Source of the DNA: Pelagomonas calceolata
Taxonomy: Eukaryota > Sar > Pelagophyceae > Pelagomonadales > Pelagomonadaceae
Direction: 5' to 3'
Length of the DNA stretch: 64,000 nt
NCBI GenBank assembly: GCA_918797485.1
Contig: CAKKNE010000003.1
Span: 744,001 to 808,000 of the forward strand
The notes under the pieces were generated by a model, which had not been told where the DNA came from, did no database searches, and saw only the letters and a list, made by a program, of their open reading frames with translations. Positions 18,557-63,656 of the stretch are shown in pieces. Each line of letters opens with the position of its first letter. The first letter of the stretch is position 1. The position numbers were made by a program, and so were the translations under genes.

Positions 18557-19050
18557 GTTTGTTGCTTGCGGTTGACCGTCGTTTGCGCCACACCCACGGC
18601 TCCGGGCGCGGCGCAGCTCGCTCCCGGCGGTCTGGGGGCTGCGGGCGTACTCTCGGCGGCGCGCGACGGCGGATGAAGCCGTCCGTGGGCTGCCCGTCGC
18701 ACCAACGTTTACGAACTTGCCGGGGCAGCAAGCTGGTGCGGCGCGCGAGCGAGCCGGCCGTGGGCATTTCGTTGCTCGCTGCCGAACGGCTCGTCGGCCG
18801 CAGGCATGGCTGGCGGGAGCGCTTCGTTGATTGCTAGTGTCTTACTGGAGCTATGGGCTCGACAACACCGACGCCGCGCGCGCCTGCTTGCGGATCTGCG
18901 AAGCCTCGCTCTGTGCTGCTTTAGCGCATCACTCCCACACGAGTCGCCGTTTCAACTCCTGAAACGCTGCGACTGCATACGTTTTTCAGCCCTCATCCCT
19001 GCTGCTCATCATTTCAGCAGCACACACAGCGAAGGCGCCCTCGAGAGAAG
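18557..19050. other. Divergent promoter spacer with palindrome copy
   Basis: 494 bases between divergent genes. Apart from the GCTAGTG palindrome copy at 18831-18854 nothing specific was seen. Confidence 0.6.
18831..18854 (+). promoter_or_regulatory. GCTAGTG palindrome, copy 1
   Basis: TTGCTAGTGTCTTAC followed by TGGAGCTAT. The left arm and core are perfect and the right arm is shortened. It lies about 195 bp upstream of the plus-strand start at 19051 and 275 bp from the minus-strand start at 18556. Confidence 0.75.
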
Positions 19051-19986
19051 ATGTCGGAGCCCTTCGTCGGCAGAAGAGTAGAAATCACGGGCACGAGCCG
19101 CGCCGACCTGAATGGCAAGCGCGGCACCGCTATCAGTTTCGACACGGACAAAGGGAGGTACCGCGTCCGCGTCCGCGGCAGCGACATGTACCTCAAACCG
19201 AGCAACCTGCTCCCCGTGCCGGAGACGGGCGCGCCCTCGAGCTTTGCGGACGTCAGGGACCAGGCCGAGCAGTACGCCGACGAATTCATGAGTCGTTTAA
19301 AAGACGTGCTGCCTCCCGGCTTCGCCCCCCGCGACGCCCTCTTCGCCATCGTGGGCTTCGCGCTGCTCTGGCGAACGGCGGGCCTGGTGCGTGCTGCGGC
19401 TGTATTGCTCGTCACGGTCTTAGCTCTCTTCTCCGGCGCGCGGGAGGCCTACGCCAAAGCCGGCGGCGGCGTCAAGGGCGCCAGGGCCGGTTTTGACGCG
19501 GCCGGCACCTTCGCGGCGAAGGAGGTGTCGCGGCGGGCGGGCCGGCCCATCACCTCGAAGCAGGCATGGGTAGGCCTGGCCTTGTTAGTATTGCTGGCGT
19601 ACCAGTTCGGAGGCAAGGCGGCGCCGCGGCGGTCTACCTACAAGCCACCGCGGAGCGCCTACGAGCCGTCCGGGGGCTCATCGTGCGCCGACGCCTACCG
19701 GCGGGGCTTCGACGACGCCACGGCGGGCCGAAAATACGACGCGGACGCCGGCGGCGAGGCGTACGACGATGAGCCCGAGGCGGGCCACGAGCCGTCGGGT
19801 GGCATGGGTTCGGCGCTGCTGAGCAAGGGCCTGCCACTCTTCTTCTTCGGCAAGCAGGTCCACCAGCTCGGCGGGAGCCCGTGGAACCCGCAGGTCGCTC
19901 AGAGGAACTTCATGGCCCTCGACCCGATGCGCAAGGCCATGTTTGGCTTCCTGGTCCTGCGGCTCCTCGGCCTGTCGCCGCTCTAG
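19051..19986 (+). CDS. Membrane protein with N-terminal SH3/KOW-like domain
   Basis: 311 residues. Residues 1-50 (GRRVEITGTSRADLNGKRG, then GRYRVRVRG) resemble the small beta-barrel found in several stramenopile and plant proteins that bind through a VxVxGL...LNGKxGxV pattern. Hydrophobic helices are near residues 92-110, 114-130 and 172-188 (WVGLALLVLLAYQFG). A Gly/Asp-rich linker follows, then a final hydrophobic segment MFGFLVLRLLGLSPL at the C-terminus. The function was not recognised. The gene converges on the small gene at 20061 with 74 bases between. Confidence 0.7.
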   Translation: MSEPFVGRRVEITGTSRADLNGKRGTAISFDTDKGRYRVRVRGSDMYLKPSNLLPVPETGAPSSFADVRDQAEQYADEFMSRLKDVLPPGFAPRDALFAIVGFALLWRTAGLVRAAAVLLVTVLALFSGAREAYAKAGGGVKGARAGFDAAGTFAAKEVSRRAGRPITSKQAWVGLALLVLLAYQFGGKAAPRRSTYKPPRSAYEPSGGSSCADAYRRGFDDATAGRKYDADAGGEAYDDEPEAGHEPSGGMGSALLSKGLPLFFFGKQVHQLGGSPWNPQVAQRNFMALDPMRKAMFGFLVLRLLGLSPL

Positions 19987-20060
19987 TACTTGAGGCCGTT
20001 CGGGCTCCGCGCAGGACGGTACCGGTGTGACTGATAGTAAAATACAAAGTTTTAGCAGTC

Positions 20061-20622
20061 TCAAAGGGGCTGGCACGTGTACTCCTGCGTCTCGACGGCC
20101 GATATGCCCTCGATGGCCGAGAGCTTGGAGATGAACTCCTGCTCCGGCGCGTAGTCCGACGCTTTCCACGCGTCGTGGTCGGCGCAGGGTTGATTGACCA
20201 CGATCTTGAAATCGTGGCAGCCACCGCACATCACGCGCGTCACCTCCGCGTTCGGTAAGGCCTTGAGCGTGGGCAGATAAGACTGGAGCAGTTCTTCGGC
20301 CGCTTTGAGCGAGGCCGAGTTGGCGGGGCCGCCTTCGCCGTCGGCGGCGTATTTGCAGCGCCACTCGCGGGCGACCTTGTCGAAGGTGATGTTGCAACCT
20401 GTGGTTCGGTGGTCAATAGTTTTAGGTCCACAAGCCGGCGCGCGCGGCCCAGCCACCAGTAACGCGCGCGCGTCGCGGAGAAGGAGTGGACTAAAGGCCA
20501 CCACTTCCAAACTCGAATATACGTATCAATGAGACGCTGCAAATTGTACCAGGTATGGTCGGCATGGTGCGAGAAGAGATGCGATGGACAGTTGGTGCAC
20601 GACGTGTGAGGGAGGCGAGCAT
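20061..20622 (-). CDS. Small Cys-containing protein with possible organelle presequence, two exons
   Basis: The single long frame has no ATG, so I infer exons 20622-20550 and 20398-20061, giving 136 residues. Exon 1 encodes a basic Ser/Arg-rich presequence (MLASLTRRAPTVHRISSRTM) suggestive of mitochondrial targeting. The phase-1 GT-AG intron (20549-20399, 151 nt) joins TIPG to CNITFDK. The mature part has a CGGCHD motif (VMCGGCHDFKIVVNQPC), and the C-terminal FISKLSAIEGISAVETQEY has an alternating pattern like a small alpha/beta fold. Function unknown. The intron has no convincing introner ends or target duplication. Confidence 0.55.
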
Positions 20623-20649
20623 AGGGCAAAAAACTTGTGCTGCGCTGGA

Positions 20650-20674
20650 GCTAGCGCATGTAAGACACTAGCAA
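20650..20674 (-). promoter_or_regulatory. GCTAGTG palindrome, copy 2
   Basis: Minus-strand reading TTGCTAGTGTCTTAC then ATGCGCTAGC. It is 28 bp upstream of the inferred minus-strand start at 20622 and 117 bp upstream of the plus-strand start at 20792. Confidence 0.8.
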
Positions 20675-20791
20675 GCGACGCAGCTGAAAATCAGCTTGTG
20701 GGGCGGCATAACTAGGCTCGAGCGCTGACAACCATCGTAGGACTCCACCACACGTGCCGAAGACAGCCGTGCGATCTGTGCGATCTGTGCG

Positions 20792-23700
20792 ATGGCGGAA
20801 TACACAATAGTGGCAAAAGAGCCAGACGGCGACGCGGACAGCCTCTCTCTGCAAGGCGCATTCCTCACTAACACGTCAAATGAGAGCGAAGACGGCACCG
20901 GCGGCAGCGGCCGCCTGAACAACAACCAACTAGCGATCGTCGCCACGCACCGCGGCGCCGACGCGTCAATGATAGCGAGGGCCTGTATTGATGATCCAAA
21001 CGTGCTGCCCTGCCTCGCGAGAAAGGGCACCACAACAACACACCCGCAGCTCACGTCCTTAAGACGTATACTAAGGGCCAAGGCCGGGTGCCTGCGGTCG
21101 GCGGCTTTGGCGGTCCGATGCGGCGGCCCGCGCGCCGCTCTGGACCTGAGACTGCGCTTTTTGGTATATCAGGTCTTCAAGGCCGTCCAGAAACTGGGAC
21201 AGATAGGCGAGCTCTCGGCCAGAACGGTCTTCGTGACGGACGACGCCTGGTGCCGCGTCCTCCCGACCATAGCCATGCCGCGACCGCCCACGACGGCGTC
21301 GCCGACATCACGATGGGTCGACGGAAGCTTGTCGACCTTCGACTATTTACTCATACTAAACCGGGCCGCCGGCCGAAGTACCGCGTTAACCAATGACCAC
21401 TACGTCTTCCCCTGGGTCTCGGACTTTTCCGTGAAGCATGGTGGCTGGCGTGATTTATCAAAGACGAAGTTCAGAATAGCCAAGGGCGACGAGTTATTGG
21501 ATAGAACTTATCAAGTAAGCAAGCATCACGTGAGCGACCCGGGCCTCTCGGATTTAGCACTGTGCATCTACCTGGCTCGTAGAGCACCCTTGTCGGTCCT
21601 CAAAAGCGTTGTTCGTACCAATTTTGTCCCGGAGCACTACCCTGCGACCGTCGAACGACTGTACGCGTGGTCGCCCGACGAATGTATTCCCGAGTTCTAT
21701 TGCGACGCGAGCGTCTTCGCCTCTTCCAACGAATTGAAGGACCTCGAGGTGCCCTCGTGGTGTGCATCTCCAGAAGATTTCGTGAGGTACCATCGGGAGT
21801 TGCTAGAAAGTCAAGAAGTGTCGAAACACATACACCTCTGGATCGACCTCACGTTCGGCATCAATGCGACGGGCCCGGCGTCCATCCGCGAGCGGAACTG
21901 CCCCCTCGTCGTCAAGGGCGACGCCTACCGCGGTTCCAAAGTGTCTACGTCGTCGCCGGGCGCGGCTCGTTTATTTTCCGTGCCGCATCCTCGACGGGCC
22001 GTATCACAACCGGAGAAGCTCGAGGGCGTGTCCATCCTCGAAACGTACTTGGATGGAACGGCGACGTCCGGGAAAGCGCATACGTCATTGAGACAGTTTT
22101 CGGATAGAGACGCAATTGAAAGTGTAGACGCCTGCCTCACGGAGTGTTCTTCTCCAACAACTACTCCGGAGAAGTGCGCCGCCCTCCTACGAAGCGTCTA
22201 CGGCTTCGGCGACGAGCAGGCCGTGTTAGCGCCGGCGCCGTCTTCCGCATTACGAATCGCGGCCGCGCTCGCCACCAATAGCATGGACGTTGGTGAAGCG
22301 TTACAAGATACGGACTTCTTCCCCGCTTCGTTTAATGAGGCCCACGCCGTCGGTGCTGCCATCGAAGGCGCTTGCGACAAAGGCCGTGCGACATTATCTT
22401 CTCTGGACGCGTTCTCGAACCTAGAATTCGCCGGGGCGTTGCTCGTGCTGCCGCAGATGCTCCAAGGTCTCGAAACCAACATGAGCGCCTCAAATCTAGC
22501 CACGGTCGTCGACGTGATGGGAAGCAAGGTCGGCGCGTCGATCGCTTACGACGTGCTCGCGCCGCGCGTCGCGTCATTTATTGAAAGAAGGAAGGCCGAC
22601 GCGGCCTTCCTCAAGGACGCATCTCAAGTCGTGGCGTCTCTACACAAGCGCGCGGGGCCGCGGTCCATCGCACTCGTGCTGCCGTCGCTCCTCGACGCGT
22701 CGCGAAGGTCCATGGAAGCGACGACGCTCCTCACGCGTCTCATCGACGCCCTCGGGCCCTGTTTGACGGCTCGATTCGTGCTCCCGGCGCTCGTCGCCGA
22801 TATCGAAAGGCCCGAGCTCGACGCGAACGACGGCCGCGCGAAGGCCATCGTGTCGCTCTGCGAGACGCTCACTCCCGAGGCCGCGGCGCCTTTGATTCTA
22901 GATCCTTTGTTGAACCCGCGCGGCCGCCTCGCGCAGCTCGAAGGTGAAATAGGCGGCGCGTCGACGCAGTCGCGGCGCGCGCTGACAGAAGTTGTATCTG
23001 TGTTGAAAGCACTGGTGGGCCGCGTCGCGCAGGAGACCGTTACCAGATTTTATGTGGACCTGCCTCCGTCGCCTCTACCGTCATTGTTAAGCTGCCTGAC
23101 GCCGTCGCCGGACGCCATTGTTTCTTCTGACGACCCGTTCGCCGTCGCGGCGGAAGCACGGCGCTGCTTGGACGACGTCGCGGAGCTCATTGCGTTAATA
23201 GCGATGGCTCTTGGTGCGCAACTAACCTGTGAAAAGTTATTACCTGATGTGGATCGGTTTTTTGCCCAGCTCGTACCTCTACGAAGGGCCCCTTCTGCAG
23301 CCGCGGCAGCCCTGGCGTCGGACGTCGCCGCCGGTTTGTATGCGCCCTTATCCGCTTTATGTGGCGTCGAGGAAGCTCGATTGAGATGCCCGTCCTACCA
23401 GCGGCTGGCCAAGGACACTGTAATGCCCCCGACGCCGCCGCCGCCACCTAGAAGAAGGGAGTCGAATCTGGTAGCAGACGCCTTAAACGCGGGCGCCGAC
23501 TGGCTCCAGCGCCAGGGCGAACATTTGCGGACGCCGCAGCCCCCAACAAAGCAGGGCTCACCTGTGTTATCGCGGACGAAGGGCATGGAGCTCTCGGCGC
23601 TACGCGACGCGCGCGAGGAGTCGTCTGATGAAGATGTGCCGGCGAGTCCCATGACGTCGGGGTCGATCACCGACGACCGGTTGTGGTTGTTACCGAGGGG

Positions 23701-24903
23701 CCGACCTTTATTAGATGAGAGGCCGTGGGAGGGTGTGGACGAGCCTTACAAGTTTGGTTTTCGGTTAGCAGCAACGCCGTTGATGGATACGGCTGCGACG
23801 TCATCATCAGTACTGTGTGTGGATCCTCTGGAATCGACCGTACTATGCGGCGGCCGCGACGGCATCGTGAGGGTGTGGTCGCTGCGGCAGCACCCGCCCA
23901 AATTGGAGGGGGGGCACAAGTCCGGCGGCTCAATACGCTCCCTGTGTTGTCTGGACGGGGACGGTTCTTCTCTAAAAGCCGTGTCTTCCGATGGCCTCCA
24001 AGTGGATTACTGGGACGTCGGGCGCGCCGCGACGATTGAGAGAAGGGCCTTTGAGAAGCGGTCGATTGTCGACCTTTGTCCGGTCGCTCTCGGATATGGG
24101 CCGGGCGGCGCCTTTGAGGCCGGAAGATGCGCGAGGCAGCTAGTGGTGCTGGGCGAGGGCCAGAGCATGAATCGAATTTTCGCGGCTCACCCGACTCACT
24201 GATTGATTTGCGCACAGGCGAGCGCGTGCTCTCGGTCGTCGACGCGCGGGGTCCACCTACATTAACCGCGGCGGAGTGGCCTTTATCTTTCTCTGGAGAC
24301 CGCGAGGTCGTGGAATCGAGTTCGCCGCTCGGCGAGCGCGTCGTCTCGCCCGTGAACGCGCGCGCGACGAGCTGCTGTTGTTCTCCAGACGGCGCCTGGG
24401 TCGCCACTGCGAGCGACCAAGGGCACATTGTCGTGACTGATAGAAGGGCGGGTAGATACAGGACGTCGTTCCGAGCCCACGGCGCGGGCGTCGTGTGCGT
24501 CAAAGCGGCGTCTCGCCACGAGATCTTCACGGTGGCGTCCGACGGCTCCGCGGCCCTCTGGCGCCTCACTGGTTCAATACCTAAGCCGGTCTGCGTCCTG
24601 CGCGGGCTCCCAAACTACGGAAGCGGCTTGCGATCCTCAAACGTATCCATTAATGCATGCATGAAGCCCAAGCCAGCGCTGCAAGTTCTGGTCGCGCGCG
24701 GCCACAAGGCGGTGTCCCTGGCGCTGCCCCTGGGCAAGTCGACGCCTTTGAATCCGATCGACTGCTCGCGGCGCCTCTTCGTCGACGTCCACGGCCAGAG
24801 GATCCCTCGCGGGCACCTGAACGTGGAGGCGTGCGCGTCGCTGCCGGCGCGGCGCGTCGTGCTGCTCGGGTGCGAGGACGGGCGCGTGCGCGTGGCGGCT
24901 TGA
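20792..24903 (+). CDS. WDR81: WDR81-type BEACH-WD40 protein
   Basis: Exons 20792-24152 and 24218-24903 give 1348 residues. The BEACH domain (about residues 185-360) is close to the WDR81 class: FDYLLILNRAAGRS, HYVFPWVSDF, then KGDELLDRTY, WSPDECIPEFY and HIHLWIDLTFG. A long helical region follows. WD40 repeats begin near residue 1010 (STVLCGGRDGIVRVWSL) and continue across the intron to the end. In animals WDR81 works with WDR91 to limit endosomal PI3P during early-to-late endosome conversion; the same trafficking role is inferred. Human WDR81 is about 1940 residues, so this form is compact. It shares a divergent promoter containing a GCTAGTG palindrome with the gene at 20061. Confidence 0.85.
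24153..24217 (+). mobile_element. Introner element in the WDR81 gene, GC-AG
   Basis: A 65-nt intron, phase 1. The target duplication is GCGAGGGC and GCGAGCGC (one mismatch). The right end is TTGATTTGCGCACAG. Frame is restored only with the GC of the 5' duplication as donor (LG then ERVLSVVD), since the upstream frame hits a stop inside the element. ACCCGACTCACTG inside matches the short element at 2559. Confidence 0.92.
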
Positions 24904-33386: not shown

Positions 33387-33389
33387 TTA

Positions 33390-35948: not shown

Positions 35949-36456
35949 ACTGCCTTGGTGCTGTCTGCTTGCCGCGCCTTGACCGGTGCGGGCAGCCTCT
36001 CCCTTTTGCGGCACTCCTGCTGCTCTCTCGTGAGCTGCTGCGGCACGCCTGCGGGCGGCGCTCGCGCGCTTCGCTCTCCTGCAAAATGCGGCGCTGCAGG
36101 GAGATGGCCAGGGCTGGGTGGAGACGACAGACGCGGTGAGAAGGGTCCGTACGCCTACGTGGCTCCTATGCATCCCTGGTTTCGCGTTCACGAGAGCTCC
36201 GGCTTGCTTGCTAGTGTCTTACAGGACGCTAGCACCGAGATTTTGGCCGGTGCTTTTTACGGACTGCTCGTCCCTGCGCGACAGATGAGGACTAAGAGCT
36301 GACTTACAGACGAGAAAATACCGGTGGCTCGCAGTATCGCTTGGTTCCGACGCGGAAACGAAGACCACTAAGCCGGTCTCAAGTGGGTGGCCAAAAAAGC
36401 AGCTTACCAGCACACCGGTCGCAGCGACGCCGTCGACGCGTCCGCATCCCTAAAAG
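35949..36456. other. Divergent promoter spacer with palindrome copy
   Basis: 508 bases holding a perfect GCTAGTG palindrome (36208-36233). A GCACCG/CGGTGC inverted repeat followed by TTTTT starts at 36231. Nothing else specific was seen. Confidence 0.6.
36208..36233 (+). promoter_or_regulatory. GCTAGTG palindrome, copy 3 (best match to consensus)
   Basis: TTGCTAGTGTCTTACAG then GACGCTAGC. Both arms are complete. It is about 225 bp upstream of the SNARE start and 260 bp from the HSF-cNBD start. Confidence 0.85.
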
Positions 36457-41038: not shown

Positions 41039-42070
41039 AGCGTTAGCTTAGACGCGGCGGCGGTGTCGAACACATACTGTGCGACATCGCGAAAACCCGC
41101 CGCCGGGAAGTCACGGACCGCTTCCGGCGTTTCGATTGCGCGCTTCATGGCGTCGGATTTCCCCTGCGGGTACTTTTCCGAGACGCCGCACGCCGCGACG
41201 AGGACCTCTCTAGCTGCCCTCATCACCGGGAGCGACAGGGAGATGGAGCCGGGGTCCTTCATCTCGACGGGCAGGCACCAGCTGTAGTCGTCCGTGCACT
41301 CGTCGCGGTTCGGGTAGAGCGACCCGACCTGTGTGGAAATCAAGCAGTGTGTCGGGTGCACCCGATAACTTTTCACTAAGTCATTTCTCGGCGATGACGC
41401 GGCCGCGCTGGCTCTGTGGAGAGGTGAGGAACCGGCATAGCACGTGCCGTAAAAGTTTGATTTCCACACAGGTGCCGACGTGGCCGTCGTCGCCGACGCC
41501 GATGACCATCATATCGAATACTGGGATGCTTTCTCCACTCGCCGTCGCCGCGACCGGCAATAAGTTTTGCTGCGTCGCAAGTTCCAACAATTCGGCGTAG
41601 CGGCACGCCTCCGCCACCGCGTCCGAGGACCCGCCCAGATTGAGCACGTCCACGCCATCCCACCCGGCGTCCAGGAAGCCCGCCCGCGCCTTGGCGTGCG
41701 TGCTGAGCGTAGCGTCGGCGTCGTCGTCCACGGCCTTGTGATTGACGTAGGCCAGCAGGCAGTCCTCCGCCCAACTCGGCGAGCTACCAGCGAGCATCTT
41801 GAGCACGCTGCCACCCGGGATGGCCAGCGTGAAGGTGCCGCGCTCCTCAACGGCGCGCTTCCCCGCCTCGTCGATGCGTTTCCACACTTCCGCGCCGACC
41901 GCATCGGCGTCCGAAAGCACGGTTATCCGTGATTTGTCTGCAGGAGGCAGCGATGACTGCTCGGCTAGCTCTGCGAGGCTTTGGGCTGCGAGATGCGTCG
42001 CTGACCGCCGCTTGCATGGTGCTTGCAATGCTGCAGCACTGCTGAGCAGGAGGAGTGCCTTTGCTGCCAT
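41035..42070 (-). CDS. PGLS: 6-phosphogluconolactonase, probably plastid-targeted
   Basis: Exons 42070-41480 and 41328-41035 give 294 residues. The signature VIGVGDDGH (exon 1) continues as VGSLYPN only after the intron is removed, matching the family motif GxGxDGHxxSLFP. Upstream, FTLAIPGGSVLKML is the substrate-binding glycine segment. The N-terminus (MAAKALLLLSSAAALQAP) is a signal peptide followed by a basic, Ser/Ala-rich stretch, as in stramenopile plastid presequences. The enzyme hydrolyses 6-phosphogluconolactone in the oxidative pentose phosphate pathway, giving NADPH supply. A GCTAGTG palindrome lies 133 bp upstream. Confidence 0.9.
41329..41479 (-). mobile_element. Introner element in the 6-phosphogluconolactonase gene, GT-AG
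   Basis: A 151-nt intron, phase 0, placed exactly within the catalytic DGH-VGSL motif. The terminal inverted repeats are the best preserved in the window: CTGTGTGGAAATCAA on the left and TTGATTTCCACACAG on the right, a perfect 15-bp pair. The target duplication is GTCGGCAC and GTCGGGTC. It carries the CCGGTTCCTCACC module. Confidence 0.95.
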
Positions 42071-42202: not shown

Positions 42203-42229
42203 AGCTAGCGACCTGTAACACACTAGAAA
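42203..42229 (-). promoter_or_regulatory. GCTAGTG palindrome, copy 4
   Basis: Minus-strand reading TTTCTAGTGTGTTACAG then GTCGCTAGCT. It is 133 bp upstream of the 6-phosphogluconolactonase start. The core has TGTGTTAC instead of TGTCTTAC. Confidence 0.75.
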
Positions 42230-43497: not shown

Positions 43498-43520
43498 GCT
43501 AGCGGTAGTAAGACACTAGC
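43498..43520 (-). promoter_or_regulatory. GCTAGTG palindrome, copy 5
   Basis: Minus-strand reading GCTAGTGTCTTACTAC then CGCTAGC. It is 92 bp from the minus-strand start at 43404 and 140 bp from the plus-strand start at 43660. Confidence 0.8.
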
Positions 43521-46797: not shown

Positions 46798-47163
46798 GAG
46801 TCCGTCCCTATTTTACTGTCGATGTGTCGTTGCTGAAGGCACCGCGTTCGCCGACCGCGTTCGCCGATCGCTCCTAGCGGACTGTAAGACACTAGCAAGA
46901 TCAACAAAGTGGCGGGCCACGTGATTGCTGTGCGTCGGCTGTCTTAGCCTTGCAGGTGGTGCTAGGCGTGCATCAGAGAGTGCTCTGCTCGCGTCTTGCG
47001 GCGGGCGACTTGTCCGTGAGGCGTTGTGCGTGTCGGAGAGCGCACTCCACCGGAGCTCACACTCACAGCTGGTGTCGCTGCGCGTCAATACTCCAAACGG
47101 CTACACCCAATTCGAACAGCTGCACAGACGCTCGCACGCCGAACAACTGCTCAAAAAAACAGG
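46798..47163. other. Promoter spacer of the selenoprotein gene
   Basis: 366 bases between the Nup133-like stop and the selenoprotein ATG, holding one GCTAGTG palindrome at 46873-46898. Nothing else was seen. Confidence 0.6.
46873..46898 (-). promoter_or_regulatory. GCTAGTG palindrome, copy 6
   Basis: Minus-strand reading TTGCTAGTGTCTTACAG then TCCGCTAGG. It is about 265 bp upstream of the selenoprotein start. This is one of two copies between genes transcribed in the same direction. Confidence 0.8.
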
Positions 47164-48380: not shown

Positions 48381-49181
48381 CTAGGCGGCCATCTTCACGG
48401 CCTCGGCATCGTCGTAGACGCACATGTCGATGTTCACGCCCATCTCGAGCTCGAGGTCCTTGAAGCCGCGCGCGAGCTTGGCCTCGTTGACGCCTGCGAA
48501 AGCGACCGGTGAGTCGTGCCGAGCGGCGAGAGACCCCACGACGCCATCGACGCGAGGGGCGGTGAGTAAATCCGCGCCGCCACGCCATCGACGCGACGGG
48601 CGGCGAGAGACCCGCGCCGCCACGCCATCGACGCGACGAGCGGCGAGCGACCCACGACGCCATCGCCGTGACGTCGGATTCAGACACCGATCACTACGGT
48701 CCTTGGAGAGCATGACGCCCGACAGACTGAACAACTGCGTGCCGCCGTGGGGCGCGCCCTCGGTCTTCGTCTCGAGCTTGGACAGCGACAGCCCCTCGTT
48801 GGCCACAAATTCCGTGACGCGCGCGATCAACCCAACGCCGTCGGCGCAGGAGACATCGAGAGCAGCGGCGAAGGCGGGAGCTTCCACGCACTCCTCGGCC
48901 TCGTGCGCGCTGACCGAGTGGCCGGGCACCGCGCTCTGCACGGCATTGGTCAATGCGGCGTGCTGGTCCGCGCCGGCCTCCACCAACATCGCCATGGAGA
49001 AGACGGGCCCGATGGAGAAGGATGAGCTCTCGACGACGTTGCCATCGTGTTGGGCGATGGCCCGCGTCACGGACGAGACGAGGCCGCCGCGGTCCGGGCC
49101 GACGACGCTCACGACGAGCTGGCTCAGAGGCCGGCGGGCTGTTAAGGAGGCGAGGGGGCGGAGGGCGCGCGTCGCGAGCAT
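48381..49181 (-). CDS. Tandem ACT-domain protein (GcvR-like), probably mitochondrial
   Basis: Exons 49181-48698 and 48493-48381 give 198 residues. It starts MLATRALRPLASLTARRP, a typical mitochondrial presequence. Two ACT domains follow: VVSVVGPDRGGLVSSVTRAI near residue 22 and LDVSCADGVGLIARVTEFVA near residue 108, the GPDRxGLV form seen in glycine-cleavage regulators and amino-acid sensors. The intron replaces nothing conserved and restores MLSKDR to VNEAKLARGFK. Ligand and target are unknown. Confidence 0.8.
   Translation of the reverse strand: MLATRALRPLASLTARRPLSQLVVSVVGPDRGGLVSSVTRAIAQHDGNVVESSSFSIGPVFSMAMLVEAGADQHAALTNAVQSAVPGHSVSAHEAEECVEAPAFAAALDVSCADGVGLIARVTEFVANEGLSLSKLETKTEGAPHGGTQLFSLSGVMLSKDRSDRCLNPTSRRWRRGSLAARRVDGVAARVSRRPSRRWRGGADLLTAPRVDGVVGSLAARHDSPVAFAGVNEAKLARGFKDLELEMGVNIDMCVYDDAEAVKMAA
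48494..48697 (-). mobile_element. Atypical introner-like intron made of ~40-bp tandem repeats
   Basis: A 204-nt GT-AG intron, phase 1, holding about four tandem units of roughly 40 bp. In gene sense each unit carries GTCGATGGCGT and TCTCGCCGC. The CCATCGACGCG core is the same module found in the introners at 3295, 17898, 50454, 60312 and 63777. The canonical GTGTGGAAATC ends and an 8-bp duplication are not visible, so this may be an introner expanded by slippage. Confidence 0.7.
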
Positions 49182-49486: not shown

Positions 49487-51458
49487 TTAACCCTCTCGCG
49501 CCTTCTTCGGCGGCGGCGCCTCCGGCCCCTCTTCGACGGCGACGCCCGGCGACCAGCGGTCGTTGTCCGAGACGGCGCTCGTCCAGCGGTCCGGTTGAGA
49601 CGCCGTCGCCCGCTCCTTCAACGCCCCCAGCACCTCTTCAAACAACTCGCGCCGGCGCCCGCGCGGCACGCCGTCGTAGGCCGAGTGTCGCGCCAGCGAC
49701 GGCTCCAAGTCCTCGTACGTCGCGTTTTTATCATCCGGCCACCTCAAATAATCCTCGAGCAATTCCCGAAACCTTCGCTCCCTTCTTTCCCGCCTCCTTT
49801 GTTGATCCCGTGCCTCTTGCGCCGCCTCATCTCTGAGATCGACAAACACGCGCGCGAGCTGCGGCCGTCGTAACTCACAGGCCTCACTCAAGGTCCATCC
49901 CTCGAGACGGCGCTCGTGCCGCACGTCCGCATCGCGCGGCGGCGACCGTCGGTCCACTTTTTTCAGCGCCGTCAACCAAGCACCAAAGGAACTCAGAGAA
50001 ACATCACACCGCCTCGTGAGGTCGCGGCACTGACGTCTATCAATCTTGAAGGATCTATAAGCTAAATCCTTGGCCCGCCCAAAAGCCCGGACGCAACAGT
50101 CGCCGCCTAGTCTTGAGGAACAAGCTGCTAAATCAGCCATGGCCTCCTTGACCCTCGCAATAACGACTTCAGTGTCATTGTCCTCCTCCTCCTCGTTATC
50201 AGAAGGGAGCTGGCCCTCTTCCGCGGCAAATGCTGCAGACATCTGGGCGACCGCCTTCGCGCCGCCCCTTTGTCTTGCGGCTAACACCGTGTCGAGCTCG
50301 GCGAAGGGCAGTTCCCTCGGGAGTAAGCCTCTTAGTATAGCAGCTAAAGCCGCATCCACAAAAGCCCTTCTCTTCGTATCGTCGCGCCTCCGCACCGTCT
50401 CGTGGCAGTCATCCACAAACCGCTGGTACTCCCTCCTCCGGTCGTCCGGCGACCTGTGCGGAGAGACACGTCGATGGCGTCGCGTCGATGGCGTTATGCT
50501 TCGGCAGACGCGTGGTGCTGAATCGGCGCGTCGACCTCCACGCCATCGACGCGACACCGGTTGATTTCCACACGGGCAACGACAGCAATAGGTTCGGGTT
50601 CTTCTTCTGCATGGCACTTTCCACATCGGAAAACCGAGTTCGTCCGAAGACGCCGATAAGTAGCGCCGCGTCGTCGTCCTCGTGCGAGGCGGCCGGGTGC
50701 TCCCTCGCTAATTGTACCAATGCTTTGCGGAAGGCCTCGCGCGCCTTTTCCGTCGACTGCCTTTTCTCGGAGGCGTCCTTCTCGCGGAGCGCATCCAAAA
50801 ACTCGTCGAACAATCCCTTTCTTTCTGTCGAGGTGGCGACGGCCTGATACCTTTCATCGCACGTCGCGGCCAGCAACTCGTCGGCCCGGGACCAGGGCGT
50901 GTCCACGGAAATCTCCTCGGCCTCGGCCAATAACCGGAGGAAGCCGGCTCTCGCCTCCCTGCTTCGTTTTCTTTCGATCTCCTTCTCGACCTTCGCGCGC
51001 TTCGTTTTATATTCGGCCAGAGCTTGTTTGCGTTCGCCCTTCGGCAAAGACATAAAGGTCGGGTGCTGTCCTAACTTGGCCGAGACTTCGGGGAACGTCG
51101 CCGTGGACTTGATGTCGCTATCACTCAGCAACTGCTTGAAGGCCTCGACCTTCTGCTTTGGATCTAACACAGGTTCCAGGGGCTTGATGTTCGGCTCCGG
51201 CTCCGGTTCCTTTGCAACGACTGGTGGTGCCTCTTTAGCCCTCTTGTTCGCCTCGATGAGCGCCGCGGCCTTCTCCCGCGCCTCTTTATACGCGGCGGGC
51301 TCCTCCCAGACACTGGTGGCGCCGTCGCTCCAGTAGGGCTTGCCTTCCGGCGTCTTATATTCTTTCCAGGTTCTCTGCGTCGGCGGCGGCGGCGGCGGCG
51401 GCGCGGCGGGCGCGCCGTAGTAGGCCGCGTAGGCGCCGGCGGCGTAGGGCCAGGACAT
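49487..51458 (-). CDS. PRPF40: PRP40-like splicing factor (WW and FF domains)
   Basis: Exons 51458-50584 and 50453-49487 give 613 residues. A Tyr/Ala/Pro-rich start (MSWPYAAGAYAAYYGAPAA) is followed by one WW domain, TWKEYKTPEGKPYWSD and TSVWEEP, near residues 29-52. FF-type domains follow: KVEAFKQLLSDSDIKSTATF near 105, then ARAGFLRLLAEAEEISVDTP, REAFRKALVQLAREHPAASH and others. The C-terminal half is Arg/Glu-rich (RRRERRERRFRELLEDYLRW). PRP40 is a U1 snRNP component that bridges 5' and 3' splice sites early in splicing. It is notable that the splicing factor itself carries an introner intron. Family length is normal. Confidence 0.85.
50454..50583 (-). mobile_element. Introner element in the PRP40 gene, GT-AG
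   Basis: A 130-nt intron, phase 2, between NLLL and SPDDRRREY. The left end CCGTGTGGAAATCAACC is clear; the right end CTCTCCGCACAG is decayed. The target duplication is GTCGTTGC and GTCGCCGG (three mismatches). It contains two GTCGATGGCGT modules and the GTCGACGCG word. Confidence 0.85.
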
Positions 51459-51867
51459 TTTGTTAGAAGGGTGCTGTCGAGTACCAATTGACGCGCGGCA
51501 GCGATGGCGTCAGGAGCGACGCGCAGCAGCGATGCACGTCAGCAGCAGCAGCGATCGCTTGTGGGCCTGCTGCGCCGCCCTGCCAGCGAAACTCGAGGCG
51601 CGCCAGCTAGCGGCATAAAGACACACTAGCTTCGACGGTCCACGGTACTTGATTACGGCTGGGAGGCCACAAACAGCGTCGGGGACCGCGGTACCGGTTA
51701 CTTAGCACCGTTTCGCTGCTACCAAGGCCGCGCCGCGAGCCCTTGCCGCGCGCCGCGCCTGCCGCGAGCTTGCCCTCTCTCACACCAGCCTTTCAGCCGC
51801 CGCGCCCGAGCCGCGCGCGCGCGCAGCCGTCTGCAAAGAAGCCGCGCGACACAGCCGCGCAAAGAAT
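51459..51867. other. Divergent promoter spacer with palindrome copy
   Basis: 409 bases, GCAGCAG-rich near the PRP40 start, with the palindrome at 51605-51632. Confidence 0.6.
51605..51632 (-). promoter_or_regulatory. GCTAGTG palindrome, copy 7
   Basis: Minus-strand reading AAGCTAGTGTGTCTTTATG then CCGCTAGCT. The core carries a two-base insertion. It is about 145 bp from the PRP40 start and 235 bp from the start at 51868. Confidence 0.75.
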
Positions 51868-54035: not shown

Positions 54036-54359
54036 GCTTGTGAGTGGGCGGTCTCAGCGCGCCAAAGGCACGGGTACAGCGCGGGCTGGGCGGCGTAGGG
54101 CGACGCTGCGAAACCGTACGAAGCCGTCTGGAGTACGGGGGCAGCGTGAGGGCTGCGTGAGCGGCTGCCGCAGCGCCCAGGGCTTGCTAGTGTGTTACAG
54201 GACTCTAGCATCTTGCTAAGACGGCTGCACCAGTTTTTGCGTCGCATTGATGCTCAGCAGATTCTCCAGCCACTTACCCAGCCTCGCTAAAGCGCTACTG
54301 TGCATCTCTGGCCCTACAGGCTGCGTCTCACAGCTGGCAGGCGTGATAGCCCAGCAGTG
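54036..54359. other. Divergent promoter spacer with palindrome copy
   Basis: 324 bases with the palindrome at 54184-54209, almost midway between the two start codons. Confidence 0.6.
54184..54209 (+). promoter_or_regulatory. GCTAGTG palindrome, copy 8
   Basis: TTGCTAGTGTGTTACAG then GACTCTAGCA. It is about 150 bp from each of the two divergent start codons. Confidence 0.8.
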
Positions 54360-55958: not shown

Positions 55959-56457
55959 TTGGTGTGTATAAGTGTACATTGTGTAGTCAATGGTTCGGTT
56001 CGTAGTGGTCTGATGCCTAGAAACTTGCTCTAGTGTCTTACAGACGCTAGCTTCCTGGCACCAGGGCAAAAGCGCACCGCAGCTGTGCCCCGCAACGCAT
56101 TTTGCCTGATCTGTCTCGTGCGCAAAAATTTAGCGCATCAGACCTGCACACAGCCGCAAGCACAACACGTGCAAACGCAGCGTCCCAGACTATACATCAG
56201 AAGCACAAACAGTGTCGCGCCCGCGGACGAACACGAGCAACCCCTCGTTTCGCGGCGCGGCGCCCGCCGGCGGCCCCGAGAAGCCGTCGGCGCGGCCACG
56301 GCCGTGCGAGAGCACCCCTGTCGATCGACCCGGCAGGGCGCGACCTAGCCCCCCGCGCGCCCCGAGCTCCAGGCCGCGGGGAACGGATCGCGGGCCACCC
56401 TCGCAGATCCGCGGAAAGCGCTAATGGGTGGATCGCCAAGCAAGTAGCTCGTTCATA
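55959..56457. other. Promoter spacer of the ankyrin gene
   Basis: 499 bases with the palindrome at 56025-56051. The second half is GC-rich with open frames of biased composition but no domain. Confidence 0.5.
56025..56051 (+). promoter_or_regulatory. GCTAGTG palindrome, copy 9
   Basis: TTGCTCTAGTGTCTTACAG then ACGCTAGC, with a CT insertion in the left arm. It is about 405 bp upstream of the ankyrin gene start at 56458. Confidence 0.75.
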
Positions 56458-58396: not shown

Positions 58397-58430
58397 GCAC
58401 GGTTTTCCGCGGAGCTATCCAACACGCATC

Positions 58431-59039
58431 TTACCCCCCACCGCCTTTCAGCAGGTCCTTCGTCGCCAGCTTCGTCAGCACGGCGCGCTCGACGTCGCCG
58501 CGCTCGTCGGCCGAGAGCCCGAACCGAGACACGAGCGCCTCATGTGCCGAATCGGACCGCGCATCCAGCGCATCGAGGGGCACGCGCCGCCCGTCGACGC
58601 GCCCTACCAACTCCCGGAACTCTTCAACTGAGGAAGAGACCGCGCACACCAGCAATCGCGTCGTCGCGTCCGACGCGCCGACGTCGCGGAAGGCGCCGCC
58701 CATCGACGTGGAGGGCGCGAGCGCGTACACCAGGTCCGCGCCCGTCGTCCGCCCCCGCGGCAGGTCGTGGGATTTGACCGCGTAGTCGCGCCCCGCGGCC
58801 TTGTTTTCCGCGCGCCGCGCGCAGTTCGTCGCCGCCTGCCGCAGCACTCTTACGCTAACGACGCGGTCCGCGTCGATTAATGCGAGGTCTCCGGTCATGT
58901 CGCCCTGCACGCACTGCGCTACAAGTTCGGTGGCGTTCGTGACGCCTTCAAATAACGCGCATCGTACGTTAAAGTCCGGGTAGAGTTCGTTTTTTAGTAG
59001 ACCATCGTCGTCCGAAGCGTTGTCGCTGGCGTCGGCCAT
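58431..59039 (-). CDS. KEOPS complex subunit Cgi121/TPRKB
   Basis: 202 residues from MADASDNASDDDGLLKNELY. The Cgi121 pattern is visible: VRCALFEGVTNATELVAQCV near 26, DLALIDADRVVSVRVLRQAA near 51, ARRAENKAAGRDYAVKSHDL, then LVYALAPSTSMGGAFRDVGA and RLLVCAV. Cgi121 binds the Bud32 kinase in KEOPS and carries tRNA for t6A modification. An acidic start and a Gly-rich end are extra. Assignment rests on the spaced motifs and length. Confidence 0.75.
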   Translation of the reverse strand: MADASDNASDDDGLLKNELYPDFNVRCALFEGVTNATELVAQCVQGDMTGDLALIDADRVVSVRVLRQAATNCARRAENKAAGRDYAVKSHDLPRGRTTGADLVYALAPSTSMGGAFRDVGASDATTRLLVCAVSSSVEEFRELVGRVDGRRVPLDALDARSDSAHEALVSRFGLSADERGDVERAVLTKLATKDLLKGGGG

Positions 59040-59570
59040 CGATGCGATTTGTGTGCGCAGCGAGCGTGCTGCTGCGGCCTGCAGTAGCGGCGCTAGCTCG
59101 CGTTACGCCTCGAAAATCACAGGGCAGTGCACGAGTGGATGAGAAACACCACGCACAGTGCAAATGCCACCGCTGGCTCGCACTCACGGGCAAAAAAGCT
59201 GGGCCTCAAAAGGGTGCAAACCCGTGCGCAAGCACGCAAAATTTGCGGCAAAACGAAGCGCGAGGCGTCTCCTCCTTGCCGATTGGGACCGCTTCGGATA
59301 GCTTGGACTGCATCAGACAATCGAACCTGTTTTTTTCAGTCGGCACGACGTCGCGCACATCGGCCCGACATCGGCATCCACGCAAGGGCGATAGCTGGTG
59401 ATCGCACCGTTGTAGAGCCCTTACTGCACCACATCGGTCGACGGTTGCAACAGCGGTGCAATACCGCTACGCGCAGCGTCAAAACTGCACAGCAGTGGGG
59501 TGGCCTTGCAAAAAAACTGCGCGCGCCCGAGCCGTAGATAGCGCCGCCGCAGCGCAGCAGCACAACAACG
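59040..59570. other. Divergent promoter spacer
   Basis: 531 bases between the Cgi121 and ATP/ADP translocase starts. It contains GCGCTAGCTCGCGTTACG near 59087, which shares only the arm word with the palindrome. No RNA gene was seen. Confidence 0.5.
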
Positions 59571-61567
59571 ATGGCCTCTGCCGCGCCCGCGCCCGCGAAG
59601 CCCCCTCCGGTAAAAATCGACGAGCCCGAGGAGTTGAAAGGAAAGGGCTGGAGCGGCATGGAGCTCGAGAGCGGCACCTCCACCAAAGACGTCGCCGCCG
59701 ACTCGGCGTTCGAGCGGGTCTTTGAGCGGTTGTACGGCAAGATGACCTTCGAGGAGAAATTACGGTTGATCTGGCTGGCCGGGACGCTGTTTTTTATTAT
59801 TGGAGGCTACTGGTTATTGCGAAGCTTGAAGGATCCGGTCATCGCGACGATCTGTGGGGTCGAGTACATCCCGAAGGCCAAGATGCTTTCGGTGTTGGTG
59901 GTCTTGGTACTGGTCTTCGTCTACAATAAATTGATAGATATGTTCCCGAAGCACCAATTATTTTATATTGTCGGCGGCTTCTATGCCGGGTTGTTCACCT
60001 TGATAGCTTGCTTGTTGGCGGCGCCGGCCACGGCCCAAACGTCTATATATAATACGAACGCGTCTCCATACAGACTCATAGGCTGGATCTCCTACTGTAG
60101 CATCGAATCGTTCGGTTCTATTGGTGTTTCATTATTCTGGGCCTTCACGAACTCTACCTATAACTTGGAGGGCGCAAAAAAGGCGTACGGCCTCATGGTC
60201 GCGTGCGCGCAACTCGGTTCGATCGCCGGTCCTACATTAGTGAGCGTGGGCACGGAGGCCTACGGCGTGCCGACGATCTACTTTTGTGGCGCGTTGTGCA
60301 TGGTCGCGATGGTTTTGAGGCGGCGTCCCTTGTCTTTTCTTTCACGGCGCATCTGCTCGATGGCGTGGTGGCGCTGCGGCTCGCCGCTCGATTTCTTTCC
60401 ATCGGTCGCGTCGATGGCGTGCCGGTGACTTCTACACTGCCTCCCCGCCCGTCGCGGCGAGGGCGTGCTGGGGAGTCGACGTACCGCGACCCGACGCCGT
60501 CGCGACGCGACTGGGTCCGGCCATCGGCCGCGGAGGTCACAGCGCGTCGCGCGCGCCGCACGACGGCGTTCCCATGTCTGCGCGGTCGCGTGGATGCGCG
60601 TCGATGGCGTGAACGCCTCCCAAACTCTACGGAGGCGCTCTCACAGACGGCACCACACCCCGCGCCGCCGCCGCGACGCGCGCGTCGATGGCGTTATGCC
60701 ACGCAGGTCGTCTCCATCTACGGCTACAACCTGCGCTTCCCCCAGCAGCCCGACAGCCCCCGGGCGTCGACGAAGAAGAAGTCTAGCGCCGGCATGACCG
60801 AAGGCTTGGTGCTCTTCTGGAAGTACCACTACGTGAAGGGCATCTTCGCGCTGTCCTGTTTATTCATGGTCGAAGTTACTATTCTAGATTACTCGATGAA
60901 AGTTTTAGCGAAGGCGAAGTTCGACAGCGAGCACCCCGGCGACCCCCACGCCGCGACGCGCGCCTTCGCGTCCTTCATGGGCGTCTTCGGCCAGGCCGCC
61001 AATGGGTTGTCGTTTTGCTTTTCGCTGCTGGGGACCTCCATGGTCATCCGGCGCCTCGGGCTGAACCGGACTTTATTATTATTCCCTACTTTATGCTTGG
61101 GTGCGATATGCTTCGTGTATACTACTCCAACTTTGGAGGCGGTGTTCCTGGCCATGCTGCTGCTGAAGGGGTTTTCCTACTGCTTGAACAACCCCTGCAA
61201 GGAGATCTTGTATCAACCAACATCATCAAATGTCAAGTTCAAGGCCAAGAGCTGGATCGACGTGTTTGGGGCCCGCGGGTCCAAGGCGCTTGGATCCGTC
61301 GTGACCAATGCTTTTTCCGATAGCGCCGCCGATTTGTTATCTTACGGCGCGTTCGTGGGCATGAGCGTCGCGTCGTTCCTCATCTACGTCGCCTGGTGGC
61401 AGGGCCGCGAGTTCGATAACCTAATAGACGGCGGCGTGAAGCTCGGCGAGGAGCCCGAGCCCGTGCCCGCGTCTGCTGTGGACGAAGACGGCGAGGGCAC
61501 GTCGTGCGGGCTCGAGGAGGAGGAGGACGACGGGGGCGTCGAGGAGAAGAAGAGTATCAATGTGTAA
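59571..61567 (+). CDS. NTT: ATP/ADP translocase (NTT family, plastid/rickettsial type)
   Basis: Exons 59571-60311 and 60707-61567 give 533 residues, with about eleven or twelve membrane helices ([40 protein letters not shown] and so on). Family marks: [55 protein letters not shown] and [16 protein letters not shown] proteins exchange ATP for ADP (or other nucleotides). No plastid presequence is visible in the first 70 residues, which are Pro/Lys-rich and soluble, so the membrane is uncertain. Neither exon has a frameshift. The tail is acidic. Confidence 0.92.
60312..60706 (+). mobile_element. Long introner-like intron in the translocase gene, GT-AG
   Basis: A 395-nt intron, phase 0 (VAM then VVSIYGYNL). 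It contains at least three copies of the GTCGATGGCGT module and ends GTTATGCCACGCAG, like other introners. The left end lacks GTGTGGAAATC, and the flanks GTTTTGAG and GTCGTCTC match poorly, so target duplication is doubtful. It may be a composite of nested insertions. Confidence 0.65.
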
Positions 61568-61860
61568 CTTGAGGGTAATATATATGCCAAGGTGCGTGCG
61601 CTGCCGGAGTAGAGCTAGGCAAGGCATATCGAGTGGCGTCGATCTGGAGGCGTGTGCGCGCGCGGAGTAGAGTGCGGATGTGTGTTGCGGGGTCGGGTCC
61701 GTTGAGGGGGGTATGCTTATGATGAGACAAATCAAGTTTTAGGTCATCTTGCCGTCAAAATTCGTAAACAGGAGGGTTTGGCGTCAGGACGCGGCGGGGC
61801 TCAAGCTATCTCACTGTAAAAAAAGCTCTCAAACGATCTCCGCGAAAATTAAAAGTCGCC

Positions 61861-62454
61861 ATGGCGCAAAGGGAGACGTCCAAAATTCCAGCGAAAAAGG
61901 CGCCGCCCGCGAGCAGCGACGCCCCCCAAGCGACGCCGCCAGCGGGAAAGAAGTCCGTCGTCGAAGTTACTCTCAGCTACAAGATCGTCGCGTCAATCGG
62001 GCATCTGTTCGTGACGGCGTGCGTGCTCGCGTCTTTCGCCGGCTGGTTCTACCTGCTCAATCCCAGAGCGAAGCTCGTGATTTTCTGCGTCTTCGTCTAC
62101 GGCCACTATCGCTACGCGTGCATCAGCGCAAAAATCAAATCTCGCGGCGCTTCTTGAGCCTCGAGCGACTCACTGGTTGCTTCTGTCGCAGGTCCGCATG
62201 CAGCACGCGAACTGGATGGATAAATTCGCCGACCGCCGCGCGCGCTACGATCCGAAGTGCCCGTCCCACCAGCGCCAACTACCGCGGCGCCGCTCTTCCG
62301 TAGGCGACGGCGACGGCATTGCGGACGCCGTCACGACTGGAAGCGTCAGGGTATGTTCCCGGGCCGCTACTCTGAAATATTTGGGCGCGGCGAACGACCA
62401 GGATGTATTCTGAATTTGGGTCATTCTTTGGACGCTATCGAGGCGTATCTTTAA
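61861..62454 (+). CDS. Small two-helix membrane protein, C-terminus uncertain
   Basis: Exon 1 is 61861-62115 (MAQRETSKIPAKKAPPASSD start; membrane helices SIGHLFVTACVLASFAGWFY and LVIFCVFVYGHY). A 76-nt introner (62116-62191) leads to exon 2 with VRMQHANWMDKFADRRARYD. Exon 2 either runs to a stop at 62413, or a second GT-AG intron (62300-62349, phase 0) joins a third exon encoding GMFPGRYSEIFGRGERPGC, ending at 62454. The second model gives 155 residues and a more protein-like C-terminus. Function was not recognised; an ER or mitochondrial membrane location is likely. Confidence 0.6.
62116..62191 (+). mobile_element. Introner element in the small membrane-protein gene, likely GC-AG
   Basis: A 76-nt intron, phase 0. 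The left end CAGCGCAAAAATCAAATC and right end GGTTGCTTCTGTCGCAG are decayed terminal repeats. The target duplication is GCGTGCAT and GTCCGCAT (three mismatches). The only in-frame donor near the left end is GC. Confidence 0.7.
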
Positions 62455-62606
62455 ATTTACTAGTAAGTCGCTACGCTAGCTTGCTCTCATTGTTTTGCGC
62501 GCCTGGCTTTGCTCTTTCTATAGTTTCGGCGCGTCGGCAACTGAGGAAATTGGCCAGCGGCTCCCCAGAACTTCCGGGAGGACGTGTCCTCGAGACAAAA
62601 TACCCG

Positions 62607-63299
62607 TTACAACACACTAGCGCAGACCGCGTCGAAGCACTCCGCCGTCTCGCTCAGCCAGCCGCCGAGCGGCTCGGGCAGCGGCGGCGGCGCCACCGTA
62701 GACAAGACGCCGTCGCCGAGCCCCGTCACGGCGCGCACCGCCTCCGCGTTCCCGAGCGCCGCGTCGTCGCCGACAAAAATTATAGAGCGCACGTCGAAGC
62801 CCCGCCGCACGAGCGCCTCCCAGGCGCATAACGAACAAGAAATGCCGCCGAGCCGCGCGTCGCCTACTAATAAAGCCGGCACGTCCAGCCCCGCGTAGGC
62901 GTCGGCCTGGGGCCGCCCCGTCGCCGTCGGCGACAGGCAGCCGCCGGCGGTCTCGACGACGCCGAAGGGCTCGTCGCCCGCGCGCATCCACCCTGAAACG
63001 GCTCGGGCGAGCTCCGCGTCGCTCGGTATTTGTCCACCTTCCTGCCGCGCGGCGACGTGCGGGCTCGCGTACGCCCGCCACGCGTGCAGCGTGTCGCAGC
63101 GGCCGAGGCCGGCGGCGGCGTAGCGTTTGACCAAAGCTGCGTCGCCGGCGTGGTCGTCGTCGACGCCCGTCTGCAGGGGCTTCAGGTACGCCGCGCGGCC
63201 GAACCTCCGGAGGCCCGCTTTTATGAGTGCAGCGGAGCACAACGTCTTGCCGACCTCGGTGTTGGCGCCGAAGACGATGGCCGTTCGTCGTGCGGCCAT
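62607..63299 (-). CDS. BioD: Dethiobiotin synthetase
   Basis: 230 residues, bacterial BioD length. P-loop GANTEVGKT near residue 11; KPLQTGVDDDHAGD near 40; ETAGGCLSPTATG near 114, matching the VEGAGG motif with Thr in place of Gly; then PALLVGDARLGGIS for the second substrate loop. BioD closes the ureido ring of dethiobiotin from DAPA with CO2 and ATP. It stands alone here rather than fused to BioA as in plants and many fungi. The Glu-Gly to Glu-Thr change in motif 3 is mild. No obvious targeting peptide. Confidence 0.88.
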   Translation of the reverse strand: MAARRTAIVFGANTEVGKTLCSAALIKAGLRRFGRAAYLKPLQTGVDDDHAGDAALVKRYAAAGLGRCDTLHAWRAYASPHVAARQEGGQIPSDAELARAVSGWMRAGDEPFGVVETAGGCLSPTATGRPQADAYAGLDVPALLVGDARLGGISCSLCAWEALVRRGFDVRSIIFVGDDAALGNAEAVRAVTGLGDGVLSTVAPPPLPEPLGGWLSETAECFDAVCASVL

Positions 63300-63656
63300 T
63301 TTTTTGGCGTTCTTGCACCACTACCGTCTGTGGTGCCGAGGCCACTGCAGGGTGGGGGTCTGTGCAGGCGTTTACTGGCCGCAGATCTGCAAATTTTGAC
63401 AGCTACCGCGACTTATGCAGCGATGCTTTACGAACACGTTGTTTTGAGCCGCCTCGCGCCGCTCCACTGGTTTTTTTTCGACAGCTCGGCACACTTGCTA
63501 GCGGGCAGTAAGACACTAGCACGACCAAATCGTCGCCCACTAGTCCTTCCACCTACCTCTGCATTCCTCCCATCTCGACGACTGCATCAGCGGAAGGCTG
63601 GCTCGGCGGTCGCTGTCATTTCTTCCGAGGCTGGCCATCCAGAAAAAATTGCTCTC
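63300..63656. other. Divergent promoter spacer with palindrome copy
   Basis: 357 bases with the palindrome at 63496-63522. Nothing else was recognised. Confidence 0.6.
63496..63522 (-). promoter_or_regulatory. GCTAGTG palindrome, copy 10
   Basis: Minus-strand reading GTGCTAGTGTCTTACTG then CCCGCTAGCAA. It is about 195 bp from the BioD start and 135 bp from the start at 63657. Confidence 0.8.

What the first reader, a model, noticed from the sequence alone, without database searches (positions are those of the whole stretch)
18831..63522. A ~25-bp imperfect palindrome marks promoter spacers, ten copies in 45 kb
Consensus TTGCTAGTGTCTTACAG, 2-3 variable bases, CGCTAGC. Copies at 18831, 20650, 36208, 42203, 43498, 46873, 51605, 54184, 56025 and 63496. 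All lie in spacers that contain at least one start codon, seven of them between divergent genes. None was found in coding sequence or in the roughly dozen convergent spacers. Both arms and the asymmetric TCTTAC core are conserved, with no target duplications, so a binding site is more likely than a small transposon. Distances to start codons are mostly 90-270 bp. The genes involved have unrelated functions, suggesting a general promoter or bidirectional-promoter element. I do not know of a description of this motif.
Basis: seen in the sequence. Interest (0 to 1): 0.85.

Follow-up and report, generated by a model that had tools for sequence, protein, structure and literature searches.

The report
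Palindromic element centring bidirectional algal promoters
A 24-base two-part DNA sign, repeated thousands of times in the genome of what is probably a tiny ocean alga, sits mostly between pairs of genes that point away from each other and is probably a protein docking site at the middle of a shared two-way promoter.

Summary
All ten copies are there, in a 32,445,274-bp, 8-contig genome that I infer to be Pelagomonas calceolata. Refined form: [G/C]CTAGTGT[C/G]TTAC, 2-5 nt, CGCTAGC. The 13-base left half with up to one mismatch occurs 1661+1590 times genome-wide, against 6+6 for the reversed pattern; the exact two-part form 649+669 against 0+0.

In 344 kb (window plus 280 kb fetched elsewhere) a home-made gene finder puts 0 of 60 copies in coding sequence. 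They occupy 41 of 73 divergent, 16 of 104 tandem and 1 of 73 convergent spacers; held-out 80 kb alone gives 10/18, 2/21, 0/17. Copies sit mid-spacer, about 200 bp from each start, flanked by short A/T runs; strand composition flips near them. No sign of target duplications.

Best explanation: the binding site of an unidentified factor that opens chromatin and centres bidirectional promoters, working like yeast general regulatory factor sites or the vertebrate CGCG element. Binding and activity are inferred, not shown. About 44% of divergent spacers lack it; a second element, GGCTGCCC, also marks divergent spacers. Nine paper searches found no description of it.

The parts
18833..18855 (+). copy 1, divergent spacer; left half perfect, right half with 3 mismatches
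20650..20672 (-). copy 2, divergent spacer; no mismatch
36210..36233 (+). copy 3, divergent spacer; no mismatch
42204..42227 (-). copy 4, tandem spacer; 2 mismatches
43498..43520 (-). copy 5, divergent spacer; no mismatch; a long TTG-start ORF runs across it but is not called coding here
46873..46896 (-). copy 6, tandem spacer; 1 mismatch
51606..51630 (-). copy 7, divergent spacer; variant with two extra bases in the left half
54186..54209 (+). copy 8, divergent spacer; 2 mismatches
56029..56051 (+). copy 9, tandem spacer; 1 mismatch
63497..63520 (-). copy 10, minus-strand gene to the left, window end to the right; no mismatch

Best explanation
The element is the recognition site of an unidentified sequence-specific DNA-binding protein, or two-part complex, that marks the centre of promoters, mainly bidirectional ones. 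The two conserved halves (left [G/C]CTAGTGT[C/G]TTAC, right CGCTAGC) are read together across a short elastic gap. Binding, helped by short poly(dA:dT) runs on either side, would keep nucleosomes off the middle of the spacer so that RNA polymerase II starts in both directions, each start codon lying about 200 bp away. Shown here: sequence, copy number, spacing, position, spacer class, A/T-run enrichment, and a composition flip near the element. Inferred: that a protein binds it, that nucleosomes are excluded, and that transcription starts on both sides.
For: Copy number far above the reversed control. Divergent 41/73, tandem 16/104, convergent 1/73, coding 0 of 60 copies; held-out 80 kb 10/18, 2/21, 0/17, 0 of 12 coding. 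Limited to spacers of 200-600 bp: 37/61, 11/52, 1/13. Mid-spacer position: sd of fractional position 0.12 (n = 42) against 0.27 for uniform, minimum 0.18 in 5000 simulations. Fixed short gap between halves. A/T runs of 4 or more within 35 bp of 43 of 59 copies against 21.7 (sd 3.5, maximum 30 in 200 trials) at random points of the same spacers; runs of 5 or more 26 of 59 against 9.7. Composition contrast split at the masked element 1577 against 1317 (sd 74), 0 of 300 permutations as high. Strand counts even genome-wide; 9 same and 7 opposite to the gene in tandem spacers. Neighbouring genes of varied function.
Against: No binding, transcript or chromatin data. 32 of 73 divergent spacers lack a copy by the rule used, so it is not required for two-way promoters. 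Motif-less divergent spacers also flip composition at mid-spacer and have A/T runs at 15 of 32 midpoints, so these features are not unique to copies; the flip locates only to within about 50 bp. In sample divergent spacers orientation is 28 plus to 12 minus, uneven and unexplained. No difference in codon bias, GC3 or CDS length between genes with and without it. Composition upstream of tandem copies does not distinguish two-way from one-way action.
Confidence: 0.6

Rival explanations
1. An insulator or boundary element: the bound protein separates two abutting promoters that are driven by other elements and stops cross-talk or read-through.
For: Mid-spacer position between two starts; about one per spacer (42 copies in 41 divergent spacers); an element this long with a flexible gap resembles sites of many-fingered proteins (recalled).
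Against: Also in 16 of 104 tandem spacers, where it lies upstream of a start; nearly absent from convergent spacers (1 of 73), where a boundary between genes would also be useful.
Confidence: 0.17
2. A replication-origin or recombination-linked binding site that happens to favour promoters.
For: Such sites often fall in promoter gaps (recalled).
Against: Density of about one per 6 kb in the sample (60 in 344 kb) is high for origins; no direct evidence either way was obtained.
Confidence: 0.05
3. Remnants of a small transposable element that inserts into open promoter DNA.
For: Thousands of near-identical copies; inverted outer arms.
Against: No excess of flanking direct repeats; conservation stops within a few bases of the two halves; placement is central.
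Confidence: 0.05
4. An RNA-level signal: the transcribed element folds as a hairpin in 5' leaders.
For: Three copies folded as RNA give -9.7 to -16.4 kcal/mol (no shuffled control).
Against: Copies lie on either strand; the gap bases that would pair with the core vary (not tested formally); no Rfam match in the window at gathering thresholds.
Confidence: 0.04

Closest known systems
Vertebrate CGCG element (TCTCGCGAGA), called the Banp motif in PMC9363121
   Same: Palindromic promoter element reported to activate transcription through divergent start sites (PMC6192621, abstract and outline seen).
   Different: 10 bp and fully palindromic; this one is about 24 bp, two-part with an elastic gap and an asymmetric core; unrelated sequence. 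PMC9363121 seen in a search listing only.
Yeast general regulatory factor sites (Abf1, Reb1, Cbf1) with poly(dA:dT)
   Same: Promoter-centred sites that, with poly(dA:dT) runs, are associated with nucleosome depletion (PMC2897762, passages seen).
   Different: Sequence unrelated (site sequences of Abf1 and Reb1 recalled); this site is longer; binding and nucleosome depletion not tested here.
Oomycete core promoter elements INR, FPR, DPEP
   Same: Promoter elements of another stramenopile lineage (PMC3599244, passages seen).
   Different: Those are 7-16 nt, lie at or near the start site, mostly within 50-100 nt of the start codon, and are orientation-biased; this is about 24 nt, about 200 bp from the start codon and of a different sequence.
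Introner elements
   Same: Repeated short elements in the same genome; introns peak near 210 bp (PMC9481584, passages seen).
   Different: This element is 24 bp, in promoter spacers, not at exon gaps.

Membership tests
General-regulatory-factor-type promoter element | concentrated in promoter spacers, depleted from coding and convergent DNA | tested here: met
   41/73, 16/104, 1/73; coding 0 of 60 copies
General-regulatory-factor-type promoter element | associated poly(dA:dT) runs | tested here: met
   43 of 59 copies against 21.7 expected; motif-less midpoints 15 of 32
General-regulatory-factor-type promoter element | bound by a protein and nucleosome-depleted | not testable with these tools
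   no chromatin or binding data
Vertebrate CGCG / Banp element | consensus TCTCGCGAGA | tested here: not met
   column counts give [G/C]CTAGTGT[C/G]TTAC-gap-CGCTAGC
Oomycete INR/FPR/DPEP core elements | YCAYTYY / MWTTTNC / SAASMMS at or near the start site, forward-biased | tested here: not met
   definitions; the element's sequence differs and shows 9 same, 7 opposite to the gene in tandem spacers; start sites themselves were not available
Small transposable element (MITE) | target-site duplications | tested here: not met
   direct repeats of 4+ bp at 12% of 59 copies against 8% in controls; 6+ bp 1 of 59
Introner element | forms an intron of about 210 bp between exons | tested here: not met
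   copies are 24-bp conserved stretches, mostly in divergent spacers; some tandem spacers could in principle be introns
Rfam RNA family | match to a described family | tested here: not met
   0 matches at gathering thresholds in the window

The most novel reading that the evidence does not exclude
One lineage-specific DNA-binding protein with an unusually long two-part site, possibly many-fingered, organises about half of all divergent promoters of a globally abundant alga, both opening the shared promoter and separating the two genes: an independently evolved counterpart of the yeast and vertebrate factors and, as far as my searches show, the first such element described in pelagophytes.
Probability: 0.3. 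Interest if true: 0.78.

Novelty: new member of a known kind. Interest (0 to 1): 0.64.

Why it matters
I found no promoter motif described for the nuclear genes of pelagophytes in the papers searched. A 24-base element that recurs several thousand times and marks where two-way promoters are centred would give a direct handle: it can help gene annotation, supply a compact two-way promoter for genetic tools, and lead by pull-down to the protein. It also bears on whether general regulatory factors arise anew in separate lineages of eukaryotes.

Tried and rejected
One search used a wrong gap and found nothing; one search corrected it. A gap in the place list (no listed plus-strand hits between 1.82 and 3.01 Mb of C1) looked like a motif-free region but reflects a capped list: one search lists hits there. 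Codon bias, GC3 and CDS length as proxies for expression: no difference. Composition upstream of copies in tandem spacers has the sign expected of two-way action, but motif-less 3' flanks show it too, so it tells nothing. Weak copies in motif-less divergent spacers (gap-tolerant matrix): 2 of 32 score above 25 bits, 3 more 13-16, 7 more 9-12; the 99th percentile of shuffles is 8.4, so decayed copies may exist, but some convergent spacers also reach 12-16. The matrix was built from the copies themselves, so their own scores (23-44 bits for the 41 divergent spacers that hold copies) are inflated. GGAGAGC/GCTCTCC cluster about 140-150 bp from copies: not tested further. Viral contigs: 0 hits for the exact two-part form; 20 contigs with one hit each for a looser form, which I take as chance by a rough estimate not made in a call; loci not read. 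Other pelagophyte genomes are not held, so conservation was not tested. The genome-wide control with gap 7-36 was asked ten times and never answered; the local control is. I did not search for a binding protein.

Full report
WHERE IT IS. The window is C3:744001-808000 of a 32,445,274-bp assembly in 8 contigs. Size, contig number and GC (63.6% in the window) match the published Pelagomonas calceolata genome: 32.4 Mb, six nuclear contigs with contigs 7 and 8 for the organelles, GC 63.6%, 16,667 genes, 0.45 intron per gene (PMC9481584, passages seen).

THE OBSERVATION. With the motif written as GCTAGTGTCTTAC, 2-5 nt, CGCTAGC and up to 4 mismatches, the window gives 10 matches against 0 (reversed) and 1 (complemented) for control motifs; C1:1.0-1.2 Mb gives 39 matches against 2 and 0, 38 after merging overlaps. 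Genome-wide, the left half with up to one mismatch is found 1661 + 1590 times against 6 + 6, the exact two-part form 649 + 669 times against 0 + 0. The 344-kb sample holds 60 sites and 40 left halves with up to one mismatch; scaling 3251 by 60/40 suggests roughly 4900 sites in all, a rough estimate of mine.

ANATOMY. Column counts over the 59 copies in counted spacers show a left half [G/C]CTAGTGT[C/G]TTAC, often preceded by TT and followed by A, and a right half CGCTAGC, often followed by T. The gap between TTAC and CGCTAGC is 4 in 37, 3 in 14, 2 in 5 and 5 in 3 copies. Of 40 left halves, 28 have GCTAGC at gap 3-6; three others have it elsewhere within 60 bases downstream, and two GCTAGC lie within 66 bases upstream. 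The outer arms (GCTAG and CTAGC) are inverted; the core is not symmetric. These counts describe copies chosen by a 4-mismatch rule. A gap-tolerant matrix separates most copies (23-44 bits in the 41 divergent spacers) from most other spacers, with a tail of weak matches (12 of 32 motif-less divergent spacers score 9 bits or more; shuffle 99th percentile 8.4).

WHERE COPIES LIE. I trained a simple seven-state gene finder on the window and C1:1.0-1.2 Mb. Segments under 200 bp were dropped before spacers were counted, and introns count as tandem spacers. Training region: 31 of 55 divergent, 14 of 83 tandem, 1 of 56 convergent spacers hold a copy; 0 of 48 copies coding. Held-out C2:2.00-2.07 Mb and 10 kb of C4 with everything frozen: 10 of 18, 2 of 21, 0 of 17; 0 of 12 coding. 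Pooled: 41/73, 16/104, 1/73; divergent against convergent p = 9e-15, against tandem p = 1.4e-8, tandem against convergent p = 0.0014; in spacers of 200-600 bp 37/61, 11/52, 1/13. The one convergent case has a perfect left half and 3 mismatches in the right. One of the 60 copies (63497) lies beyond the last gene segment and is not in the spacer counts. Mechanical TTG- or GTG-start ORFs run across three window copies, which the gene finder does not call coding.

POSITION AND ORIENTATION. In divergent spacers fractional position has mean 0.50 and sd 0.12 (n = 42), against 0.27 for uniform placement. Median distance to the coding segments is 214 bp left and 191 bp right in the training region. Strand counts are even genome-wide. 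Tandem spacers: 9 same, 7 opposite to the gene; divergent spacers with one copy: 28 plus, 12 minus, uneven and not explained. Distances on the left-half and right-half sides do not differ (p = 0.22).

SURROUNDINGS. Runs of at least four A or T lie within 35 bp of 43 of 59 copies, against 21.7 (sd 3.5, maximum 30 of 200 trials) around random points of the same spacers; motif-less divergent midpoints give 15 of 32. Reading away from the element, the sense strand has C over G on 65 of 80 sides and A over T on 51 of 80. With the element masked, splitting each of 40 divergent spacers at the element gives a contrast of 1577; swapping fractional positions among spacers gives 1317 (sd 74), 0 of 300 as high. 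The optimum is a plateau about 50 bp either side, and motif-less divergent spacers flip at their midpoints too, so the flip belongs to divergent spacers in general; the copy marks its place better than swapped positions do.

GENES. In the window 9 of 16 gene segments beside copies have a Pfam hit, of varied kinds: BEACH, cyclic-nucleotide-binding/HSF-like, synaptobrevin, glucosamine-6-phosphate isomerase/6-phosphogluconolactonase, FF, methyltransferase, 5'-nucleotidase, ankyrin, AAA_26 (4 of the 20 segments scanned are not beside copies). On C1, 12 of 20 genes beside copies and 9 of 20 beside motif-less divergent spacers have a hit at 1e-5 (20 of 37 and 20 of 25 listed genes were scanned). Codon bias, GC3 and length do not differ.

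WHAT IT MOST LIKELY IS. A binding site that opens and centres bidirectional promoters. It would work like yeast general regulatory factor sites with poly(dA:dT) (PMC2897762, passages seen) or the vertebrate CGCG element, reported to act through divergent start sites (PMC6192621, abstract and outline seen). By sequence it is neither, and it differs from the oomycete core elements (PMC3599244, passages seen). A mobile origin is disfavoured by the lack of target duplications, the short limit of conservation and central placement. Insulator action is the main rival.

LIMITS. No transcript, chromatin or binding data; home-made gene models; a 344-kb sample for spacer classes; no second pelagophyte genome; 32 of 73 divergent spacers lack the element. 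A second element, GGCTGCCC or AGGCTGCC, occurs in 19 of 32 divergent spacers without and 15 of 41 with the main motif, in 14 of 104 tandem and 0 of 73 convergent spacers.

IN PRINT. Nine paper searches gave no description of this motif; only open-licence papers are held. The one paper holding the 13-mer (listing only) concerns diphthamide and appears unrelated. The words motif and promoter have no occurrences in the held main texts of the genome paper and of a 2026 Pelagomonas paper; supplements were not seen. A promoter motif of the Aureococcus virus AaV is described (PMC5917014, passages seen) and is of unrelated, A-rich sequence.

Noticed in passing
344-kb sample (window, L001-L028): A second promoter element, 8-mers GGCTGCCC or AGGCTGCC on either strand: 34 of 73 divergent, 14 of 104 tandem, 0 of 73 convergent spacers, 0.11 per kb in coding sequence.
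   Followed up: partly
window 2558-2591, 3294-3327, 17897-17930, 24188-24221, 41328-41361: Repeats of the CCTGTGTGGAAATC...GAGTCGGGTGCAC type at gaps between same-strand coding segments; they look like introner elements.
   Followed up: no
window 48531-48651, 50521-50555, 63808-63842 and elsewhere in the sample: Recurrent CGCCATCGACGC: 48 exact matches in the 344-kb sample, 31 in tandem, 7 in convergent, 6 in divergent spacers, 1 coding, 3 unassigned.
   Followed up: partly
window 15417-16175: Tandem array with a 99-bp period inside a minus-strand coding segment; probably a repeat protein, not scanned.
   Followed up: no
motif-bearing spacers of the sample: GGAGAGC and GCTCTCC cluster about 140-150 bp from the element towards the genes (7 and 8 sides of 96); possibly a start-site or nucleosome-scale signal.
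   Followed up: no
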